Shown here: positions 48,776 to 63,349 of the stretch, piece by piece
How positions within the stretch are numbered: position 1 is the first letter of the stretch
Layout of the letters: each line of letters opens with the position of its first letter
NCBI GenBank assembly: GCA_030268105.1
Contig: BSDZ01000004.1
Coordinates: 6,056,001 to 6,120,000, forward strand
Length of the DNA: 64,000 nt
Source of the DNA: Volvox africanus
Lineage: Eukaryota > Chlorophyta > Chlorophyceae > Chlamydomonadales > Volvocaceae
Reading direction: 5' to 3'
Translations under genes and position numbers: made by a program
The notes under the pieces: model-generated
Database searches by the model: none
The model's input: the letters and a program-made list of their open reading frames with translations, nothing else
What the model was told of the DNA's origin: nothing

Positions 48776-51700
48776 CTACACCTCATCCGCGCATCGAGGG
48801 GACAGCAGCGGCTCCTTCAGATTCTCACCGACGGCGACAGGGACCACGGCCGCGGCGGCGACGGCGACGGCGACGGAGGACGAAGAGCTGGCAGACCTGC
48901 CGCCGCTGCCCCCGACGGCAGGCCACGCCGCCACGGCGGCCGATGTCTCCGCCGCTGGGCTGATACCATCGGGACTGCTGCTGCCAGTGCTCCTGCCTCC
49001 GCCGCCTCCGCCACCTGCTCCTGAACTCGATGTGAAAGATGTGGGTCTCAAAAGCACGCCCCCTGCCGCCACCTGCTCCTCGTCGTCGGTCAATCTGCCG
49101 CCAGGACTCCTGAGCAGGTTGGGGGGTGGGGGGAACGAACGGCAACGAAAACATCACAAGGGTTGGTTCATAGCTATAGAGGGACCGAGGGAGAGAGGGG
49201 GAGGGATCAAATCTTGGATGTTGTTTTTTGAATGCCTTTTTTTTCCGATCACTACGCCCCACTGAGCACAGGCACAGACTATGACCGTCATTGAGCGCTC
49301 CGAAGACGCCTTCCTCCTCCAGACCGATGATCAAAATCAGTGACATATACCCGGTCGCCCTGTTTTTGCTGCTATTTTAAGTAAAATTATTATTGTTTTG
49401 TTACTACTACTATGATTGTTACTTTTGTTTTTTATTTGAAATGTATACTTTTTCCTTGTTACTTATTTTAAACTGAAAAATAGCATGACATTGGTCAGAG
49501 GACACGACTGTGGGAGGGCGACGTAATACCCACTCCGCACTCTCCCGCTGCGTACCCCTTTCCAGCCACCGTGAAGAGCTTTCTCGTGCTCGCCAGCCCC
49601 CGAGCCGCCTTCTTGACCGCCCGCTTGGGCGCCTCCACCACCGCTGAGGCGGCAGAGGTCACGTGCTCCTCCATCACCTGAAGGCCAATATCAACTTTAT
49701 TATTATTATTATTATTGAATCATATTATCATTATCATTATTATTACTACTACTATTATTATAATAAATTATTTGTATTTTTATTCATTGATATTGTTTTT
49801 TATGATTAATATAATATTTATTAATAATGTTATTATATTATTGTTATTGTTGTTGTTATCAATAATGTTAATAAAGAGCAGTAAGCGAGGGGTTTATGAA
49901 TTGGTTAAGGCTCAGATGGGCAGGGCAATTGAGCAAGAACGGGCCAATCAGGGACGCGACTTTCATTCCACTGCGACAGCCAGTTGCTGCTTGGTTGGTT
50001 TGATGTCGCAGCCTGAGACGGACGGGCGGACCGTCCCACACACAAGGTCATCCCACGCAAGGGTGCAGCCTGGGCCCGAATGAATGGCGGTTTCCGAGCT
50101 ACACAGCCAGGAACACCATCACTCACCAGGAACACTATCAGGCGCGGCAGCCCTGGGCACGGTGTGCACGTATCATACACGCACAAACATCCACATCCAC
50201 ATATCACATATCACATACGCACGCGGCGGGAGGGAGGGCTAAGGAAACCCCCCGAGACTCACCCGACCGACGTCGTCCACGACGTCTCGAAGGTTGAAGA
50301 TGTGGAGCACGTTGGCGAAGAACCCGGCGGAGTAGCCCGCGCTCATGTAGTCCTGCAACAGAAGCAGATACCGCAACCCTTCACCATTAAACTGCCAACC
50401 ATGAACTGCCAACCGGCATGGACCCAGATCGGCACTATCTGGGCTCGAAATCACCCCTCTTTCCACACACACCCCACTACCGCATGGACCCAGACCTGAG
50501 TGAGAGGCCCCCCTGCCTCTGGAAACCCCCTCACGGTCCCACCACCCGCCCCGCAGCTCCAGTCCTGTGCCTCCCTGTCCACGGCATGGGGTCCTGCCTG
50601 CCTGCCCGCTGATCTCCTCCAACCCACCCCTCTTGGCGACCCCGCCGATCACACCCTGGACGTCAAGCCCGCATCCCAGCCCTGATGCCCGGTCCAAGCT
50701 GCGCCGCATACCCGGGGCGGAAAGGCATATGCGTGCGCCAGCGCTGCCAAAAACATCTCTATGCAAATTAAGAAGTCCTGGATGCCGAAGAAATGAATGG
50801 GCAGGGCAGGGCAGGTAGTGTTGGGGTTATGTACGTACCTAAGTACAGACCGAGAGACAGGTAAAGAGAGAGAGAGAGAGAGAGAGACGAGACAGAGACA
50901 CAGACACAGACACAGACCGAGAGACAGGTAAAGGTGAAGCGCCGCACTTGGGATGTTCGTCTGCTTGCCTTCAGGGGACTGGAAAATCGGAAATGGCACC
51001 TAGGCACTTGCAAGTACAGCGCCAGGTTGGGAGTCTTGGGCTGATCGCCCCGAATGAGGTTGAGAGCGGAAGTCCTCTGCGAAAAAGCTCGTACCGTACG
51101 TACGGCAGTCATGAACGGATTTGCGCACTTATCAGCGCCAGGGAGGGCAGTGGCTGTTTTCCAGGTCGTGCCGGCGGCTCCGTCCCTCATTCGTGGTAAT
51201 TCACTGTATTCGACCCACCTGCAGGCCAGACGCCACGTTCCGTGTGTCGTACCAAGATTCTTGTCGTATAACGCCCGCGTACACAAGGATTGCGATGGCA
51301 ATGCTCTGTCCCCGCGGTGTAAGTTGTTGGGGATGGCGGGCCGATGAGGAACAGGGGTGCGCGTGAGCGTGTAAGGAAACCCATCACCGAACAGAAAAAT
51401 CCCATGCGCGGAGGGGAGGGGAGTGGAGGGGTGTGGAGTGGAGTGGAGGGGAAGGGACGGGTATGATAAATAACGGGGCCGGAGGTACAGGACCCCTCCA
51501 TACTCGAGCCACTTTGCAATATCTGGAAGTTGTAAGTTACCTGATGGCGACGTCGAAAGAGAGAAGCACTCTCGAGTGGCAGCTTCTTGAATGTAACATC
51601 GACGAACTGGTGACGGCGAGATCTAGCTGGCTGTCCTATGGGTCTAACCTTTCATCGCTAGGTTTCCCCCACATAGACACACACATAGACACACATACGC

Positions 51701-54290
51701 GAACATGGGCGTGATTGAAGAACACTACAGCTAAGGGACCTAAGGGGCTTTCCCGTCAACGACACACACAGATATGGTCCACAACAGACACACAGACACA
51801 CGCAGATGTCCTCAGTCCCAGAAGGTTCGCATGTGCCCACCCACATGCGGGGTTGTCAACCCGAGCCATCGCTGGCGAGTTGTTTGTTGTACTGGATACT
51901 GGGACTTACACGTCTGTAGCTGAGACACTTCCACACGCAACAGAAAACCCCCACAGAAACACAAAGGAAATAACCGGCACGGCGCCGTACAAGGTACGAC
52001 CTCACCTGCCAAAACGTGACGAAGATGACGGCCTTAATGCACAGGAACTTCGACAGCGGACGAATGGGCGCCAGCTCCGAATGCATGGCATTGTACAACA
52101 TCACCAGGCAGTACAGCGCCCACAACTGCATACACACATACGTACACACATTCATGTAGGCAGCAGTTGCGGCTTGTAAATTATTTATGCATTTGGAGTC
52201 AGTTGGGAGTTCGGAATTGGAATTTTGTTCCTTGTATTGTTCACTTCATCACTTTAGGAATACAAAATCATATTCCATATCACACGTTTTTGTCGAATTT
52301 TCTTCCCGGCTTCAAGACCTCAGCAGACCACACAGCACGACACACGACACACGACACACGACACACGACACACGACACAGCACTACATACCCACCTGAGA
52401 GAAATTGGTCACTGCAGCCAGATAGACGTAACTCTTCTTAAAATCGATTTGGCCCCTGTCGTACATCCCGAATATGTCCGTTATGAAGGCCAGCGCTGTA
52501 CAGACGGGGCGGATGATAACGAAATTCAGAACGCCCTGAGCCGCGCGGAAGAGAGCGCGCACGCGGATGGGGGGAGGGACAGAGAGAGAGCGAGAGAGAG
52601 ATGGTATTTGACGGAATTTTGGAGGTGAGTGGTAATACGTGAGAAGCTCAAGGGACAGAGCCGGGCGATACTGGATTGTGCTGCTGACGACCGCAAAGCC
52701 ACGCATGGGCGCAGCGGCAACGAAACCCTGAGCCTAAACCCTGAGCCTAAGTCCACTCAATCCAATCGTCCGAGAGGACCTGCCGCGTCCTGTGCGATTG
52801 TGTATGTCTCTCCCCTGACTTTCCCCCAAGTTCCCGTGTGAAACCCTCTGTCTCGCACTCCCCCGCGCTTCACCCCCTCTCCAAAACTCATTTCCCCTGT
52901 CAGATGAAGCCGCGAAAGCTTTTCCCCCTGCTTCACCGGAGCGCACCTTCCTGCACTCCCACAGATAGCGTGTTCCCATGTCCCAGGGCCGTAGCAGCCA
53001 CCGAGCAATACACAGGTGCTGCACCTGGGGCTTCTCCCGCATGTGGTCCTCCAAGTTGGGGTACTTTTCCTACGAATCACTCGGGCAAAGGCAATAGTTG
53101 GGCTGCAACATGCTTAAGGGAAACGTTCAGCTGCAACATTCTCTGTTCATATTCTCAATATGACCTAACCACAAACTGCCCGCCATATTGGTGTGACCCA
53201 ACCATTCCATACCACCCCTAACCAACTCCCCAACTAAATAACTGTACCTGCAAAAATGCCATGAGATAGGCCAGAAAGGAATAAACGACAAACGCCTCAT
53301 AGCACTCCCGGATGGGATCCAGGTACTCGCGCGCCTGGAGTTTTGGATTTGGATTCAGAACTTAGATTTTGGTTGAGATTCGAATTGCTGAATTTGGATT
53401 CAACATGTTATATGGATTTAGATTGGAATGGGTTTTGAATTAGTTAACGACAACGGCATGATTGCGACCTGCATCCCGAGCCGAACGTGTCCGGCGAACG
53501 TCCAGAGCCGTTAATTCTGCGTTGGTTATCGGCTCCTTAGCCTGTAAACAAAGCCCACTCTACCTCCGCCGTTTAACTGCAGCTCCTGTTGTAAGACAAC
53601 CCGACATACTCTTTGCATCCGTGTTGGTATTCCCGTACAAAGTTGAATGCACTTCGCAGAGCTGTATGTGGCCCTGCCTGAAAGCTTCTTAGGGCCTTCA
53701 CTCATTTGCCTCCTTACCTTTGCGAAGCGCAAGGCCAACCAGGCGTCGACGGCGTAGATGGGCACCATGAGCAGGATCCGGATCACGTGTTTTTGAAGGT
53801 GCGGCTGCGTGTAGTACTCCGTGTGCAGAGCAATCTGCGCGCGGAGAATATACTTACAAGGGTGATGCCATGTGGGTTTCGGCCGCAGTGCAGCAATTAG
53901 AGTGGGAAGCGTGTCTTGTCACAGACCAAGATCGATGGCCCGTTTTATTGGGCGGGGTTGCAATCCGCCCAGAGGTTCAGAGTGTGCGATGCGGCACAGG
54001 GAAAAGTAGAAAAGCACTATCTGAGGCTCACCTCGTAAATGGAGATAGGGACAGACAGGATAGCGAAGATGCCGCCGATGAACCACGCTGTGGATTGTTC
54101 GATTGTGCCGTTGAATGGGTAGTGCCAATCGGTTAGCACGGTGTCAGAGGCGTTCTCACAACTAACCGTCGGTTAGGCGCAGATTTCCGAATATTCCGCA
54201 CCTTGGCGATGAACATCGTAATGAATTCTTTGAAATTCCCAAACCAAAAGCGGCAGTGCCATTAACGTCAAGAAACATAAGGTGAGCCAT
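48776..54290 (-). CDS. TMEM184 / Ost-alpha (DUF300) family multi-pass membrane protein
   Basis: Twelve exons, read downward: 54202-54290, 54032-54161, 53718-53834, 53248-53334, 52947-53069, 52395-52535, 52006-52125, 51219-51305, 50712-50777, 50263-50352, 49556-49677, 48776-49109; all GT-AG and in phase, 501 residues. The family has seven membrane segments and includes organic solute transporter alpha. In plants its members sit in endomembranes; a transport role here is inferred. Seen: [18 protein letters not shown] (TM1); [20 protein letters not shown] (TM2, a family hallmark); [17 protein letters not shown] (TM3); [46 protein letters not shown] then [17 protein letters not shown] (the second hallmark); and [19 protein letters not shown]. 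The tail (after about residue 365) is Ala/Gly/Ser-rich and cytosolic. Exon 1 is tentative: it fits phase and splice signals but has no family conservation. Confidence 0.92.
52331..52380 (+). repeat. (ACACACG)n-like repeat
   Basis: About seven copies of CACGACA/CACACGA in the short intron between exons 6 and 7 of the TMEM184-like gene. Confidence 0.85.
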
Positions 54291-54794
54291 AGCTACGGAA
54301 GCGAAGACAGGCAAGACGCGTTTAGCAGAACGTCTTAATGAATAATTATTGAACGTTTCGATTGTTGTAATAACCTCACCAGGCGAAAGTACCGACGGAC
54401 GGGCCACGCCATGAGTTTTCCCCGCGATAGAAATGAAACAGCTTGCAACGAGCGCGATGATTGCGTGCAGAAGTTGTCTGGAGCATGCAATATATGTCCA
54501 AATTTTAATGTAGTAAATCTATCATGAAACTCTTTCACAAGAGGTTTTGCCCGTTACAAACATATATCCGTACGGCATCGCCGACGTTAAATTCCGCGCG
54601 TCCGAAAGCATCGGTTAAAAAGAGTAGTGGGTGTTGTACTAAAGATTGTGATTAAGATAAGGTGTGTTTGCGGAGGTGTAATTGACGTCAGGTTTGACTG
54701 CCGTTGACGGGTATGCTCTGTCACGACTCCGTCCGTACATTGCGCGTGCGGACCCTGGGCCACGAGGACCCTAGCCTGATCCAACTATCCGGGG

Positions 54795-54885
54795 ATGTCC
54801 TCTGCTGCAACGGCAACTTTCGAGTTTCAACTAGATAATGACCTAGGAAGCTCCCGTGACATGAAATTCATTACCAAATTTGCTG
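54795..54885 (+). CDS. Orphan first-exon candidate
   Basis: ATG followed by 30 codons (MSSAATATFEFQLDNDLG and on), ending at a good GTATGT donor in phase 1. The composition is protein-like, but no following exon in a matching phase was recognised before the dynamin-like gene, and no family was recognised. It may be the start of a decayed gene or a chance frame. Confidence 0.25.
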
Positions 54886-55474
54886 GTATGTACGGAAGCT
54901 GTAGCATGCTGCTTGAACGCTGCTTGGTACGCACTAGCATTTTGCTACCATCATCTTTGACACGTTCCTTCCAACTTTCAATCTTGCCAGCTAATCACAA
55001 AGTGACATACACGGGAGGCAATCGGTTTCACGCATAGTAGTAAATTACATTGAATTACTTCCCTTAACGAGCAACGCATCCAGAAGTCACTATAATCGAC
55101 ATCACCAAGAACACTGGTCGATCACGACTACTATATCGGTTATTCACCAACCAGTGAAATACGCCTCACAAGCACCCAACCCAGACACAATTATGTCCAG
55201 CCGAGTTCCCATCCGTACTCAATGAACAAACTATAAAGGCCCTGCTGGGAGTTATGACGTTCAAGCCTTCGCTCCGCCTTTCATGGTAGGACTACTAGGT
55301 ACATTGGAATTAATAGCTTTTCGTCCTTCGGACCTGCCAGCACATGATGGAGCACCGCCGTCAGGGAAAGTCGATGCCCAGTGTGCTTGGCCACGTGCGC
55401 GATCATAACCAAATCTTCAAACCGTACCCAGGATGATGAAAATACGGTGAATGAGAACCATGCATATGTCTGGC

Positions 55475-55525
55475 CGTCTAAAGGAGCAGATGGACAAGGG
55501 CCTCATCGCTCCCTCACGTTGGCCA
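55475..55525 (+). mobile_element. Decayed Ty3/Gypsy-type reverse transcriptase fragment
   Basis: A short frame with LKEQMDKGLIAPSRWP matches the conserved 'L..ll..G.I.PS.SP' block that opens the reverse transcriptase of LTR retrotransposons. The frame is broken by a stop straight after, and neighbouring sequence keeps no further motif. Ends and LTRs were not found. Confidence 0.45.
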
Positions 55526-56851
55526 TAGTGTGCGCAAGATGTTGCTGTCGCACCTAAGGTCGGGCAGTAAAGCGGTCATAGGAACGCTATAACGCCTTTA
55601 TGAGGGTGCCTTGCAAGCCTCTATCAGTAAGATTTGAGTAACACTTCCCCTTCCACCCGCTATTGCTTTCCTCTCTCCCATTCCTGGGGTTGTGTACACT
55701 GTAATGTCCTGTCAGACCAGGTTTAAGGCAACAATTCAACAGCCAAGGATGGCCTCAACGCCGCCCTGATGATGGTCTGCTCACTCTTGCGCTGTATAAA
55801 CAGTCGAGGGCCTGAATATAGCACCCTCGCCCCTATATTCAGCGCTGAGAACCCGCCTTTCCACTTTAAGTCGTTGCCCAACGTAGCGCACTTACCAGCG
55901 TTCCAATCTTCAAGGCCTTTAATCGTGGTGCTAACGGCTTCCTGGACGCCACGACCTACCCAACCTGCAAGCGAAATTGGAGCCAGGGGCGGCGACGGCG
56001 CCCCAAAGCAAACGCACCTGAACCCCACCGTCTAGTTATTTCCATATGCTACGACTATCAATATACACGACATGTAAAAATGATGCGGTCAAGGATTACT
56101 TTAGGGAAGCCGCACAGCATGGCTCCTGCGCTATAACTGGCGAACCGCCAACGCAGCACGCACTTTGCTCTCCTTTGTTCCCTCTCCGACCACGGTGAGC
56201 AGGTTGCTTGATAGAAATCTTACTACCTCCGAAGAAACGGATAATGAAGAGTGGTCTGACGCTGGCGGCGCTGGGACGGCTCCGCCGGCCATTGTAGGGC
56301 CGCAATATCAATCGGCGCAAAAATCCACTCCCTGGAGAACAGAGTAACATGTGACGCTAAGGATTATTGCAAATCCTTCCTCACATTCGCGAACGCAGTG
56401 CTGTGCGCGAAGGTGCATAATTGGATCAGTCGCAGAGTGAGGGAAGATCTATGGGCTAAGTAAAAAGCAAACTGATAGTAGTAAGTTATGGGTCAGACAT
56501 TGGCGGCTGGAAGGAGATCGGCTGTAGTCTCAGCGAAGCGAAGAAACAGTATGTGTATTTCTGCCTTCGTGGCTGCCTGGCAGTTAACTAATTGCATGTA
56601 TTAACATTACCTTGACCAAGTTGAACGCAACGAGGATTTTATACATTTACGAAAATACGGAAGAAAACTGCCGTGGAACTAGCCGTGGCAATTATGTCCT
56701 TTGAGCGTTAGAGCCGTCCACTTCATCTTTGTTGTGCAGGTATTTTTGTTTCCTGTACCAACTCGTACTTTTGGGGATTGGGATGTCAGTTAGTGCAACG
56801 TTCATGACAGGTTGAGCCACCTTCACCAGTGACTTGAGTCAGCGCAGCGCA

Positions 56852-59800
56852 ATGGCAGCCATCGCAACTCAAACAATTGACGCACCCACGGCTGGTCTGG
56901 AGCAGGTGAGGTGTCTGTCCTTGCCATGGATGAAGGTGATCGTATCTACACGGGGTTCGTCGGTTGGGCTTCCCTGAGATGCTTTATTAATCAAGCTTAT
57001 TGTTTTCTTACTCTTACTATCGTGATCGATGTGTTCCCGTCCTTGCCGTGGGCAGCCAATTACGAAGCCCTCGTGCTCGCATCCTTTCCTATCACCTTCA
57101 GGTCCTCTACAGGCTTCAGGAGAAACGCGTAGCGCTCGAAAAAGTCGTATTGCAGTATGGAGAAGCTCCTGCTGGCATTAAGGAGGTGTTCGAGTTGTGC
57201 AGAGGCTTTGAACGTGCCTACACAAATTTTATCAATGTAGGCCTTGCCTTGGTGTTTCTGTCGGGACAGTACGAGCCTATATTGAATTTGGTGGATCGGC
57301 AGGAGCATGGAAGCAGATTTGGGGACCCACTGGGGGAGAGATGGTGTACTAGAGTGGGGTTTTGTTGGATCCCCGGGAGCATATGGACATACATAACCTG
57401 CAGTCAGTAATGCCAGTCGGCTTACTCGGTGTTTCTTCTTTTTTTCTCCAAATAAGTTAGAAGCCGTTTGAAACAGATATCGTGAAACGTGCTGATTCAT
57501 TGAACCCTTGCTCCGGCAGGAATCCCCTGTCGCCATGAAAATTAAGGAGGCGTTTTTAAGTGAGGCGGGCCTGGCTGGCAAGATCAAAAAGCTTCCCATG
57601 GAAAAGGTCTTCGAGCTGAAGAATGTCAAGTCTGTAAGTGACTCGGGGCAATCCGGGAGACATCAAGGGGCCAGCAACGCCACCCACTCGCGCGTTTGAG
57701 GAGCATGTTCCTGCGGCACAACTGACCTGTGCATGAACGCTTATGATGATGCTCACTGATCGTATTTCGTCGTGTTTGATCCTCCTCACTTTTTCCTTGA
57801 AACTTATCGGCTTGGCTCATTCGGTGACCGCTGCCCCACATGTGTTGACCCATGTGTGATGTACGCGGCATGACGCCATATCTCTGCGTTTATACTTACG
57901 AAACGTAAAACGCTTACGTGTCCAAGCCTAGAGCCCCTCTATACACAGCCTCTCCTATTTCATCCCACCCCTGAACTTGACCTACTGGTTTTTCCGTGTC
58001 CCGTTCCTCCCAATAGATTTGCCGCCAAGCGGACGGCTACTATCCCAGCCTCATAGCACCGGAGAATGGCCTGCGGGAGCTATCCAACCAGGCCCTGAAA
58101 AGCATCAACGAACCGGTCAACATATGCGTGCAGGAAGTTTATAATTTGTGCATCAATGCCGCTAGGTGAGCGGGGTGCTCATAGCACCAGGCGAGCCGAG
58201 TGCCGTTAACGCGGGACAGGGCATTATGGGATTTTGAATCGGCGGAGCGGTACCATGAGATGATGGGGCATGGGTGAAGAACTTGGGCTTATGTGCTGCA
58301 CGGGCGAGGAGGTCAGGGGCCTATTTCTACAGCCCGGCACAGGTATTCCAAGGGGCAGTACCCAGCAAAAGCTTTCTTCAGTTTGGGACTCGGCACTGCC
58401 AGGTCAGGTCTGCCGCGGTAGTAAGAATACGCCTCGGGGCAGATTAAAGAGGAACGTCTAATGCGGTCAGATAACCTGCCTAAGCGTGTTGCGATATGCT
58501 GTGATATGCTGTGATATCCATCAGCGGACCAAGTATTAGCGTTCGCACCTTTCCATAAGGCGCCTGAAACCCTGTTCCTGACCGTTCACCTGTCCTTGCG
58601 TGCTCCATGGCGGGCAGGGAGGCCGCGGAGAAGGCTGGACAGTTCACGGAGGCGGCCCTCATGGGTGCGATGCCCATGTACGTACCAGATTTTAAGAACG
58701 TGGTCATGCCAGCCATCATTTCAGCGCTGGACGAGTGGAAGAAGGATAGCGAGAAGAGTGAGTGCGGGAACATCCCCCGTCTGGGTGCAGATGGCGCACT
58801 GGGATCTGAGAAGTGGTGGTATAGTTCGGGTGGACCAAGCAATTGGTTGCCTGTTGCTTGGAGTTGCTGATATCATCCGCGATTGTCGACTGCGTCCCAA
58901 CCCGCAGTGGCGCATATGCTAGTGGACATGGAACGCTCCTACATCACCGCGGGCTTTTTCCGGCATACCACCCATAATCGTTATGCGAAAATCAAGCAGC
59001 AGGAGCAAATGCGCGCCGCCATGGCAGCCAAGGGCATTGTTACCGATCCAAAGGGCGTCATTTCGGCCGCGAAGCAAACGGCGGCGAAGTTCTTTCCGTC
59101 TTTCGGCCCCGGTCCTGGCGCACCCTCGTCCACTTCGCCGGGCACTCCGTCACCCAATGGTGCCGTGGTCGATGACGACTCGGACGACGGAAAGTCGCCA
59201 CCGCGGCCGGCAAATGGTGAGGGCGAAGACTAGTTTTGAGGAAGCCGAATTGGATACAAGGGTCGGCCAGGCGTAGATGTAAAAGGGCGACGCGCAATTT
59301 TGGGAGTAGGGTGCAGCGGGGACCGAAAAGCATGTCTAGGCACGAGGGTCCCGTGCGATACGTCCACACCAGTTTTTCATCGGTGAAAGAGGTATTCTTT
59401 CCGCCGCATAGCTCCTCTTGGGATCGGAAAGACGCTCACCTATTCCATCTCATAGTCTTACATGACAATACACTGTCCGTGCTTCCTGGCCGCACCGCAG
59501 GCGCGGGTCTTAACGTGTCAAACGCCGAGGACTTCATCGCATCATATTTTGATAAGCTCGTGTCTGATGACTCGGCGCGTTTCCTGGAGGCCATGAAGTG
59601 GCAGAGGCGCTTCTTCGTCTTCTCGGAGAGCCAGCGCATTCTGTACTACTTTAAAAGTCCGGAGGACGTGTCCAAGCCGCAAGGCCTGAAGGGCCAGGTC
59701 AACATAGCGGGTGCGTTTACCTGGATTTTATGTTTTGCAAGTATGCCATGAGCAAGTTACCCTTTGGATGGTAGTGGTACGGAGAGGTGACCTATTAGGG

Positions 59801-62800
59801 GGGGCTGATGTGCAAGACTATTTGCGATGCAAAATCGGGAATTCGTTTTTGTGCGAATAGGTCGGAAGGGGAGGTTGATATGGCTAGGCAGCCTTGCCGT
59901 TGTGTTCAACCAGGCCAGCTTCCACTGTGGATGATGTCCACCCCAGAGGTTGTCTGTATTTCCCTCCGTCTTCCTGTCACAACGCGTGCGCCGAAACGTG
60001 CTGCTGCTGCGTGTGATCCCTTCCTCTGCAGACTGCCTTGTGGAGGACCTGGACGAGAAAGGCAATCCGCGGCCACCGAACGCGGGGCCAATGTCGATGA
60101 CTACCCAGGACAAGGGGCAGCTCATGATACGCATTCGTCACAGGGATCCTCGTGGCGTAGTGGTTAAAGACCACAACGGCATCATCTTGCGCGCAGGTGC
60201 CAGGCGGAGGGATTCAATTTTGGGGCGCATGGGAGGGACTGGTTTCTTGTCCACCCAACAATTCAACTTCCATCACTCAGGCGCCAATGATCATGTACCT
60301 CTGTGACCGCACTTCTTTTTTCGCGCAGAAAGCATGGACACGAAGCTCACATGGCTGGCAAAGCTGCGTAAGGCTGCAGAGTCACGCCGGCCGCCCAATC
60401 CGCCTGGCGCGGCGCCAGCTGCGCAGCAACAACAACAGCAGCAACAGCAGCCGGGCGCGCCCGCTGCACCGGGAGCACCCGCCCCCGGGTCCGGCCCCAG
60501 GTGAGTGACCTGGGATAACTGCTCTGAAGGCTTCACTGTTAAGTTTCGTCTGCTGGGTACTGCCGTGTGCTCTGGCGATGAGCCCAGACATTGGAGCGGT
60601 TGAGCCAAGGGTCGGAGCCACCGACGCTTCTCATTACCCAAGCGCTGTGACTTGGGGGGTGAGGATCTCCTACTATAGGCCGTGTATTAAAACACCTAAC
60701 TGACATGGGGTATTGGCAATGCTTGAATATAGGCCCGAGAGCGGCTCATGCGTGGGGAAGCGAATGTTTATCGTAACTAAATCATTTGCTGCTTTCCCCA
60801 ATCGCGCGTTAGACACACTGGCTTGGCGGTTTCCTATGGATAACGGCCAACGCACTCATTGATTTGACATGTCCTCGCTCCGCGATGTTCTGTCGCCATG
60901 TCTTGTCCTGTGTTCTTAACATATTACATGTGATGTCTTATTCTGTGTTGCGGCTACCTGTCTGCAGCGTGGTCGGCCCTGGGCCTGCAGCGGGTGGCCC
61001 TGGACTTGGCGGGCCGGGAGTGTCAGTTAGCGGCCCCGCCGCCGCCTCGTCCGGAATTAACTTTGGCATGGACGACGGTGACCTGAGCTGGGCCAAGGAG
61101 GCGGAACCCGTGCTGGACTCGCACCTGGGTGAGGGTTCCTCTGCCTTCAGGTATGTTTGTGTACGGTCTCGACTTCGGCGCGTGCAGCTACATGTTAGAT
61201 GGTATGCATCGGAAGGCTATGACGAGGGACTGGTTGTATATCTCAATTAAAGTGCTGGTGGCCGCGGGGCGAAAAGCTTGCAGACAAGAATACCTCTGCC
61301 GGCAGATACTTCGTGACGTGTGCAGGAACAAAACGCACACATCTCTCGCTCAAACCGTCTCGTCAGATTCCACATACAGCTGCCCATTCGTCTGCGCTGC
61401 AGGGCCGACTCCGTCCGCGACCCGGAGGGCCGGCTGCTGCCTGCACCCCAAATGTTGCTGAACCCGCTGCGTTTGAAGGACCGCATGGCGCGCGCTACCG
61501 CCGCCAGCGCGCCCTGGGAGGTGCGCTATGACGCGCTGCTGGACCAGTTTTCTGCCGACATGCAGCTTTACATCTCGTGCATCTGCGACACGATTATCAT
61601 AACAGTTCCCAAGGCCGTCGTGCACTGCATGGTAAGGAGGGGACCTAATCAATGGGTGATAAGGAAAAGAGGTGTCAGTGAAGTAAAATCAAGCCGACGG
61701 CAAACGGATGTAGAAATCTATCCGATTGGTCGCACAGGGAAAATAGGAGAAGACCCCTAGGACGAGCTGGGGCTGAGATGGAATAGTTCTATTCTATCAC
61801 GGCTTGGAATTCTTTTCACGTGGCGTTGATCCCGGATGTGACCCAGATTCGCAAGTCGGAGAAAAACCTCCTGGAACGCCTCTTCACAGTCATCCACCAC
61901 CTGACTCCGACCCAGTTGGAGAACCTGCTGCGGGAAGATGAGCCCATTATTGAGAAACGCAAGGCGGCGCGTGCATGCTTGGAGGATGTCAAGACGGCAA
62001 TCTTCCAAGTGGGTTATGTGCACGAGGGAGGAATCTGTTTGTGTGTACTGACGAAAGCGGGTGTTGCAGCAAGGTGGCAAGGGTATGGTGAAACGTGGGG
62101 GGGAACGTATGATCGGGCAGAAGCGGGGAGGTGGGCGTCAGCTTGAGACTGGGTAGGTATGTGGCCAGTAGGGTCTCGCAGGATTGCCAGGGCAGGGTGT
62201 ATCATTGGAAGCTGCCCAAGCCGCAACTGTTGGTACATGTGCCCCGTGGAACGATAACCAGACCGTGCGTTATACATATATGATATCCAGACTGGGTCTT
62301 CTTTCACATGCTTGCGTTAAGCAGGTGCAACAAGTTCTGGAGCGGCAGAACATGGCGACACCCGCAGACCGGAAAGACCGTGTACCACTGCAGGTGGGTG
62401 GGTGGGGCAGTCCGCATGCGCACGAAATTAGCAGCTAATCCCGGTGTACTGGATGTGCAGTCCACGCGCTCAGTAACATTCCCGCAAGTTTTGGGTCGAA
62501 GCCGCCATAAGACCAGCTGGCGATAGTGCGAAACCCGGAATTCAACTGTAGGGATCAACTGGGTGGAACGTAAGCCCCAGATGCCAATCGATGGGACTCA
62601 GCAACAGCTGAAGCGTATATGCGGGGTTGTCCGTATCGCAAACCCTGGGGGAAGATGAGGCGCCGCGGAATAACCTGTAGTCCTCAAAAGTGTCACCATC
62701 CAAAGCCGTTGCCACTCTTGCCACACCTTACCTCAAAAGTCATAAGCTCATGGTTGCGGTATTTTTGGCACTCGATCCTCTTCACCTGCGAATTGCAGCC

Positions 62801-63349
62801 CAATTGCAATCCTTAATGACCCGGACCTGTGACCTTGTGCATCTTGAACGCCTGAGCATCTTTCAACGCTTCCTTTGATATTCGCATTCCTCCTGCCAGG
62901 CCCTTGTCTTCGCGTACGCTGGCATCAGGGAGATGCTTACACCCGAACAGTACAACTACTTTAATGCCAAGTTTAATGACAAGTACGCGCCCGAGTGTGC
63001 GCGCTTCAACTGGTACATCCGGCCACAGAACCCTCCACCAGGGGGACTGCAAGGTGGGCCTCCCTCCCGCGGCCCGCCGGGTCCCCCTGGTGGCCCTCCA
63101 CACGGCCCACCCGGTGGGCCTCCCCACCATGGGCATCTTGGCGGCCCTCAGCCGTCGCCTCAGCCCAGCAGCGTGCCACCGCTGCGGCCGGGAGGACCGG
63201 GGGCGCCATCCATGGCTGCCGGTGGCGGGCCCCCACCGCCACGACGGCCACCGCCAGCTGCACCGATGGGAACACCAATGGGTGCACCAATGGGGCCGCC
63301 CATGGCTGCGCAACGGCGGCCACCGCCACCGCCGCCGGGGCCGCGATAA
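56852..63349 (+). CDS. DRP2-like dynamin-related protein lacking a GTPase domain
   Basis: Fourteen exons: 56852-56905, 57102-57236, 57520-57633, 58017-58165, 58618-58757, 58908-59216, 59501-59710, 60032-60196, 60329-60500, 60968-61150, 61403-61631, 61847-62008, 62325-62393, 62900-63349; all in phase, 846 residues. DRP2 proteins bind phosphoinositides and pinch membranes during clathrin traffic. Seen: middle/stalk region (ELCRGFERAY; the ADGYYPSLIAPENGLREL block typical of plant DRP2; MLVDMERSYI, residues 19-230); PH domain at about 302-447 (WQRRFFVFSESQRILYYF to AESMDTKLTWLAKL); GED at about 567-690 (VPKAVVHCM, then EKNLLERLFTVI); and a C-terminal Pro/Gly tail at about 720-846, possibly an SH3 ligand. 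Missing: the roughly 300-residue N-terminal GTPase. It is replaced by an 18-residue leader whose frame has a stop 36 nt upstream of the ATG. Exon 13 (62325-62393) is tentative. Confidence 0.88.

What the first reader, a model, noticed from the sequence alone, without database searches (positions are those of the whole stretch)
56852..63349. A DRP2-type dynamin gene with stalk, PH, GED and proline-rich tail but no GTPase
Exons 2-14 follow plant DRP2 through the stalk, PH and GED regions, almost residue for residue at key blocks. The first exon encodes only 18 unrelated residues. The 2.5 kb between this gene and its divergent neighbour shows no P-loop, DTPG or TKLD motif, and an in-frame stop lies 36 nt upstream of the ATG. 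If real, this is a non-catalytic dynamin that could act as an adaptor or a dominant regulator of a full-length paralogue. It could also be a truncated duplicate now using a new promoter.
Basis: partly seen in the sequence, partly recalled or inferred. Interest (0 to 1): 0.78.

Follow-up and report, generated by a model that had tools for sequence, protein, structure and literature searches.

The report
A dynamin without its motor
Green algae from Volvox to Chlorella carry a dynamin-type membrane protein that has kept its assembly stalk, lipid-binding domain and proline-rich tail but has no GTPase motor at all, so it probably works as a membrane-anchoring partner for a separate motor-bearing dynamin.

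Summary
The 14-exon gene at 56852-63349 (Volvox africanus, 846 aa, identical to public model VaNZ11_001793) encodes stalk, PH, GED and proline-rich tail, and no GTPase domain. It is no local truncation. None of the 88 database proteins retrieved (its own record included, some fragments), from Chlamydomonas, Scenedesmaceae, Chlorella, Myrmecia and others, has a GTPase domain; the longest is 878 aa. Dynamin homology starts at about dynamin-1 residue 291, Hinge 2, the joint between GTPase domain and neck. The 18 'unrelated' residues are a conserved start, modelled as a short strand, with another strand just after the GED. No DRP2-type GTPase was detected elsewhere in the genome; the likely partner is DRP1, a full dynamin without PH domain or tail. 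Published surveys say chlorophytes lack DRP2; one review asks how they make vesicles without it. Best reading: an ancient 'headless DRP2' that co-assembles through its stalk with DRP1, anchors the polymer by its PH domain and recruits an SH3 protein through a conserved C-terminal RRxPPPPPP. Architecture and conservation are shown; descent from DRP2 is best supported but not proven; co-assembly and SH3 partner are inferred. Loss or original state is open: prasinophytes and streptophyte algae were not seen.

The parts
56813..56815 (+). nearest in-frame stop upstream of the ATG (36 nt gap)
56852..56905 (+). exon 1: 18-residue conserved N-terminus (MAAIATQTIDAPTAGLEQ), a short strand (residues 8-12) and the start of a helix in the model
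57102..57236 (+). exon 2: neck (BSE) helix, residue 19 aligned with dynamin-1 ~296, then start of the stalk
57520..57633 (+). exon 3: stalk
58017..58165 (+). exon 4: stalk
58029..58070 (+). stalk loop ADGYYPSLIAPENG (residues 106-119), aligned with dynamin IHGIR395-399, whose mutation gave a non-oligomerising dynamin; pattern found in 78 of 88 database proteins
58618..58757 (+). exon 5: stalk
58908..59216 (+). exon 6: end of stalk half 1 and disordered linker
59501..59710 (+). exon 7: PH domain
60032..60196 (+). exon 8: PH domain
60329..60500 (+). exon 9: end of PH domain, poly-Q and Pro/Ala linker
60968..61150 (+). exon 10: linker
61403..61631 (+). exon 11: GED / returning stalk helix
61847..62008 (+). 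exon 12: GED
62325..62393 (+). exon 13: last neck helix and strand 693-697, the presumed partner of strand 8-12
62900..63349 (+). exon 14: post-GED helix, proline-rich tail, stop
63314..63346 (+). C-terminal RRPPPPPPGPR, fits the class I SH3-ligand consensus RxxPxxP (consensus recalled)

Best explanation
This is a headless DRP2: a DRP2-derived protein that lost (or never had) the first neck helix and the whole GTPase domain, starting at Hinge 2, and that caps the exposed neck with a short conserved N-terminal strand and a matching strand after the GED (SHOWN: absence, position of the start, conservation; SUPPORTED, not proven: descent from DRP2; PREDICTED: the cap). It is expected to polymerise through the conserved stalk, most likely together with DRP1, a GTPase-bearing dynamin of the same genome with no PH domain and no proline-rich tail (INFERRED). 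In such a mixed polymer DRP1 supplies GTP-driven force, while the headless subunit supplies phosphoinositide binding through its PH domain and recruitment through its C-terminal RRxPPPPPP, perhaps to TASH3 of the TSET/TPLATE complex, the one gene in this genome where SH3 domains were detected (INFERRED). It would thus be a dynamin split over two polypeptides, acting in endocytic or cytokinetic vesicle formation.
Against: No interaction, localisation or lipid-binding data exist for the algal protein here. The AU test does not reject grouping it with both DRP1 sequences instead of land-plant DRP2 (p 0.274) or placing it outside DRP1 plus land-plant DRP2 (0.216). That Cre02.g079550 is the orthologue is inferred from its being the dynamin among eleven PH-domain proteins of C. 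reinhardtii (868 residues; PMC12430284), and that Cre05.g245950 is plant-type DRP1 from its name; neither by sequence. The co-induction is two genes among 144. The strand pairing is read from DSSP strings, not coordinates; model pTM is only 0.54. The TASH3 identification rests on a sequence recalled from memory, and SH3 searches go exon by exon and score only the best candidates.
Confidence: 0.58

Rival explanations
1. GTP-independent scaffold: the headless protein polymerises with itself into rings or a static coat that bends or stabilises membranes, without DRP1.
For: Complete stalk, PH and GED modelled with high local confidence; assembly loop conserved; PH domain predicted by docking to bind PI4P in C. 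reinhardtii (PMC12430284, passages).
Against: Land-plant DRP2 works with DRP1; a polymer without a GTPase would lack the known disassembly step (general knowledge of dynamins).
Confidence: 0.22
2. Brake: a natural dominant-negative subunit that dilutes or caps DRP1 helices and limits fission.
For: DRP2 mutants without GTPase activity are dominant negative in Arabidopsis (PMC4154393, passages); a subunit without a G domain removes G-G contacts between helical turns (follows from dynamin structure).
Against: A pure brake need not keep both a PH domain and a C-terminal SH3-type ligand over this span of divergence.
Confidence: 0.15
3. Artefact: GTPase exons exist but were missed (gap, mis-assembly, unrecognised 5' exons).
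For: Gene models in most species are predictions, and own-genome searches go exon by exon.
Against: No N in the window and no GTPase motif upstream; no DRP2-type GTPase detected genome-wide (the weak C10 match, E 0.08, lies in Gly-rich low-complexity frames); same start in many genomes and in entries from transcript sources (P0009, P0017, P0075, P0081); conserved N-terminus.
Confidence: 0.03
4. A truncated local duplicate of a full DRP2.
For: None found.
Against: No full DRP2 detected in the genome; no GTPase domain in any of the 88 database proteins.
Confidence: 0.02

Closest known systems
Land-plant DRP2 (Arabidopsis DRP2A/DRP2B, ADL6/ADL3)
   Same: Stalk, PH domain, GED, proline-rich tail in the same order; best tree position.
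   Different: The 120 hits listed of 1029, land plants where an organism is named, carry PF00350; algal residue 14 aligns at about DRP2B residue 300, and the algal protein has a post-GED segment that Arabidopsis DRP2 lacks in the alignment.
Classical animal dynamin 1/2/3
   Different: No G domain, no first neck helix; 16% identity in stalk+GED over 262 sites.
Viridiplantae DRP1 (V. africanus C15:1272297-1275899)
   Same: Related stalk and GED.
   Different: Has the GTPase; no PH domain or proline-rich tail in the hand-spliced protein.
DRP4A short dynamin relatives
   Same: Short forms that the authors speculate regulate full-length DRP4C (PMC11326297, passage).
   Different: No relation tested here.

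Membership tests
Dynamin superfamily (large GTPases) | G domain with P-loop and switch motifs | tested here: not met
   PF00350 in 0 of 51 scanned; P-loop pattern in 0 of 88
Dynamin superfamily (large GTPases) | Stalk and neck fold | tested here: met
   Pfam Dynamin_M above cut-off; structural match to dynamin 293-743; first neck helix absent
DRP2 | PH domain between the stalk halves | tested here: met
   PF00169 37.2 bits, cut-off 25.1, residues 329-442; 50 of 51 homologues
DRP2 | GED | tested here: met
   PF02212 44.5 bits, cut-off 21.4; 50 of 51
DRP2 | Proline-rich C-terminal tail | tested here: met
   Residues ~745-846; RxxPxxP in last 25 aa in 72 of 78
DRP2 | GTPase domain at the N-terminus | tested here: not met
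DRP2 | Common descent with land-plant DRP2 | tested here: inconclusive
   ML support 97.6/96; AU test leaves two alternatives (p 0.274, 0.216), rejects union with V. africanus DRP1 alone (p 0.019)
DRP2 | Hetero-assembly with DRP1 | not testable with these tools
   needs binding or imaging

The most novel reading that the evidence does not exclude
The headless form is the older state of green-plant DRP2: DRP2 began as a non-catalytic, PH-bearing partner of DRP1, and the divergent GTPase of land-plant DRP2 was added later in the streptophyte line, joined at the very hinge where the algal proteins begin. Chlorophytes would then be living intermediates of a GTPase swap that others proposed from conflicting domain trees.
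Probability: 0.12. Interest if true: 0.88.

Novelty: new variant of a known kind. Interest (0 to 1): 0.74.

Why it matters
[quoted passage not shown] A survey whose main tree rests on GTPase domains, with a second tree of middle and GED regions, scores DRP2 as absent from green algae (PMC11326297, section 7 and a figure legend). A search that starts from the GTPase cannot see this protein. Its conservation gives a natural separation of dynamin's motor from its membrane anchor, in Chlamydomonas too, where the candidate gene Cre02.g079550 can be disrupted, and would let the DRP1-DRP2 hetero-polymer model be tested without a second GTPase in the way.

Tried and rejected
Missing upstream exons: scanned 50000-57102 in six frames for P-loop and DxPG patterns, none. 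Detached GTPase block: PF00350 over the own genome at E up to 1 gave 21 matches. Read by eye, the stronger ones are a DRP1 gene (C15:1.27 Mb), a second full dynamin (C4:0.51 Mb, DRP3-like), an FZL-like gene (C27), another dynamin-like GTPase (C3), an Era-like gene (C15:2.34 Mb) and a bacterial EngA on C36; the weaker matches elsewhere were not followed up. Arabidopsis DRP2B 1-521 and 1-301 found no DRP2-type GTPase; of the weak hits the one on C10 (E 0.08) lies in Gly-rich frames, the one on C117 (E 3.2) was not looked at.

Alien-GTPase idea: in favour, DRP1A-Dyn1 identity is 59% in the GTPase part and 21% in the stalk, against 27% and 36% for DRP1A-DRP2B. Against, among solved structures DRP2B's GTPase matches DRP1A best (70 bits against 57 for dynamin-1), which fits fast divergence equally well. 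Hence the low probability.

Third protein search: 1029 hits, only the best 120 listed, land plants where named, so streptophyte algae could not be inspected. No Mamiellophyceae was named in any list. NCBIfam gave nothing for three algal proteins; Rfam nothing in the window. P0081's record is labelled Picochlorum (taxid 464278), but it does not group with Nannochloris in the tree, so I draw no taxonomic conclusion for that marine clade. Papers: the ten searches listed no title or abstract start that describes a GTPase-less DRP2; only open-licence papers are held and I did not read the listed papers in full. The 2025 Chlamydomonas PH-domain paper calls the gene a dynamin GTPase without remark in the passages and sections I read.

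Full report
What is there. Fourteen exons between 56852 and 63349 on the + strand splice with GT donors and AG acceptors into 846 codons with no internal stop. The protein is identical to a V. africanus record (P0001, VaNZ11_001793; UniRef calls it 'Dynamin-related GTPase'). The window is G000:C4:6056001-6120000 of a 141 Mb assembly. Pfam finds the dynamin stalk, PH and GED above cut-off and no Dynamin_N.

It is not a local accident. The first search gave 34 proteins and a profile search 63, together 88 different ones, the window's own record and several fragments included. None has PF00350 among its precomputed domains, although proteins of up to 1.75 times the query length were eligible (tool description); only the candidates sharing most words were scored. 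The longest is 878 aa, too short for a GTPase domain on top of the rest. A Pfam scan of 51 chosen from the 88 found GED in 50, PH in 50, stalk in 48, Dynamin_N in none. None of the 88 has a G....GK[ST] P-loop. Of the 51 aligned, 40 reach residue 19, with at most 35 residues before it. The named species include Volvox, Astrephomene, Chlamydomonas (reinhardtii, incerta, schloesseri, leiostraca, sp. UWO 241), Edaphochlamys, Dunaliella, Sanguina, Raphidocelis, Tetradesmus, Scenedesmus, Micractinium, Chlorella, Auxenochlorella, Nannochloris, Elliptochloris and Myrmecia, and one record with a Botryococcus-type label. Some entries come from transcript collections (MMETSP, TSA). Models with visibly odd ends, such as V. 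carteri P0003, were kept in the counts.

The new N-terminus. Residues 1-18 are identical in V. africanus, V. reticuliferus, V. carteri and Astrephomene. In the 51-sequence alignment, position 16 is Leu in 32 of 35 sequences that reach it and position 9 is Val or Ile in 30 of 33. The model shows strand 8-12, helix 13-37 and, after the last neck helix, strand 693-697 and helix 698-704. A second model, of Micractinium P0028 at about 30% identity, shows strand 4-8, helix 9-33, strand 632-636, helix 637-643; its alignment overlaps with the first, so the two are not independent. The post-GED segment has no counterpart in Arabidopsis DRP2 and DRP1 in the alignment. Exon 1 ends about where dynamin homology begins.

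Ancestry. A tree of 314 stalk and GED sites groups 21 of the chlorophyte proteins (96.9/98) with five land-plant DRP2 (97.6/96), apart from DRP1 and dynamin-1. The AU test rejects union with V. africanus DRP1 alone (p 0.019) and a split of the marine clade from the rest (p 0.030), but not union with both DRP1 sequences (0.274) nor a position outside DRP1 plus land-plant DRP2 (0.216). The shared PH domain and proline-rich tail, which DRP1 lacks, tip the balance to DRP2.

The rest of the genome. Searches with PF01031, PF00350, and DRP2B 1-521 and 1-301 find one DRP1, one DRP3-like gene and other GTPases, and no DRP2-type GTPase. The DRP1, spliced by hand from open frames, has Dynamin_N, Dynamin_M and GED and no PH hit. 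SH3 searches with three Pfam families hit one gene, C23:1864320-1866141, with two SH3 stretches; three collinear stretches of that locus resemble Arabidopsis TASH3 as I recall it (42%, E 2e-6; 33%, 2e-5; 30%, 7e-4). These searches go exon by exon and score only the best candidates, so further SH3 genes are not excluded. The plant SH3P proteins that bind DRPs are listed as absent from Chlamydomonas and V. carteri (PMC6888108, Table 1 passage). The tail ends in RRxPPPPPP or a close form: [RK]RxPPP in the last 22 residues of 57 of 78, RxxPxxP in the last 25 of 72 of 78 proteins of 560 aa or more (ten shorter ones dropped), against 0.29 in shuffled tails; at least three of the six misses are partial or aberrant models.

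How it probably works. Polymerisation should be intact: the loop aligned with dynamin IHGIR395-399, whose mutation gave the non-oligomerising crystal form (PMC9653092, passage), is among the best-conserved blocks, its pattern matched in 78 of 88; eight of the ten misses are fragments, and P0058 and P0059 deviate. DRP1 and DRP2 of land plants interact in two-hybrid assays and co-localise in foci, and TPLATE subunits co-purify with both (PMC4154393, passages). In the alga one polypeptide has the motor and the other the membrane anchor and the docking tail, so a mixed DRP1-headless polymer is the simplest account. DRP1 marks division planes in Chlamydomonas, Tetrabaena and Gonium (PMC5717801, abstract and passages). 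In C. reinhardtii Cre02.g079550 (DRP2) and Cre05.g245950 (DRP1) are both in the table of 144 genes induced by singlet oxygen and by dark-to-light transition (log2 1.32 and 2.34; 1.03 and 2.15; PMC4067076, Table 9, section 14 part 1 and passages), and both are among the genes up-regulated in sak1 (Table 6 passages). None of this shows binding.

Against the literature. [quoted passage not shown] PMC11326297 says C. reinhardtii encodes only DRP1 and proposes that DRP2 took a divergent GTPase by recombination (section 7). PMC12430284 lists Cre02.g079550 among eleven PH proteins as 'Dynamin GTPase' (passages and sections 9-10). My ten paper searches listed no description of the missing GTPase.

Loss or original state. 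My own figures repeat the domain conflict: DRP1A-dynamin 59% in the GTPase part but 21% in the stalk; DRP1A-DRP2B 27% and 36%. This would fit a GTPase grafted onto a headless ancestor, but DRP2B's GTPase still matches DRP1A best among solved structures, so relaxed divergence, followed by loss in chlorophytes, is the more likely course. Streptophyte algae and Mamiellophyceae would decide and were not visible to these tools.

Noticed in passing
G000:C36:60500-68500 (L035): Bacterial-looking genes including an EngA/Der GTPase and a transposase-like frame on a 695 kb contig of the Volvox africanus assembly: a bacterial associate or contaminant (by eye).
   Followed up: no
G000:C23:1864320-1866141 (L043): The only gene in which three SH3 families were detected; two SH3 stretches and further stretches resembling TASH3 of the TSET/TPLATE complex as recalled.
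   Followed up: partly
P0075, P0079, P0081, P0084: A divergent clade of headless DRP2 from marine-type sources, one record labelled Picochlorum sp. RCC944 although it does not group with Nannochloris; the label may be wrong.
   Followed up: partly
G000:C3:3507000-3515000 (L036): A further dynamin-type GTPase (PF00350, 42.8 bits) that is not DRP1, DRP3 or FZL by eye; not classified.
   Followed up: no
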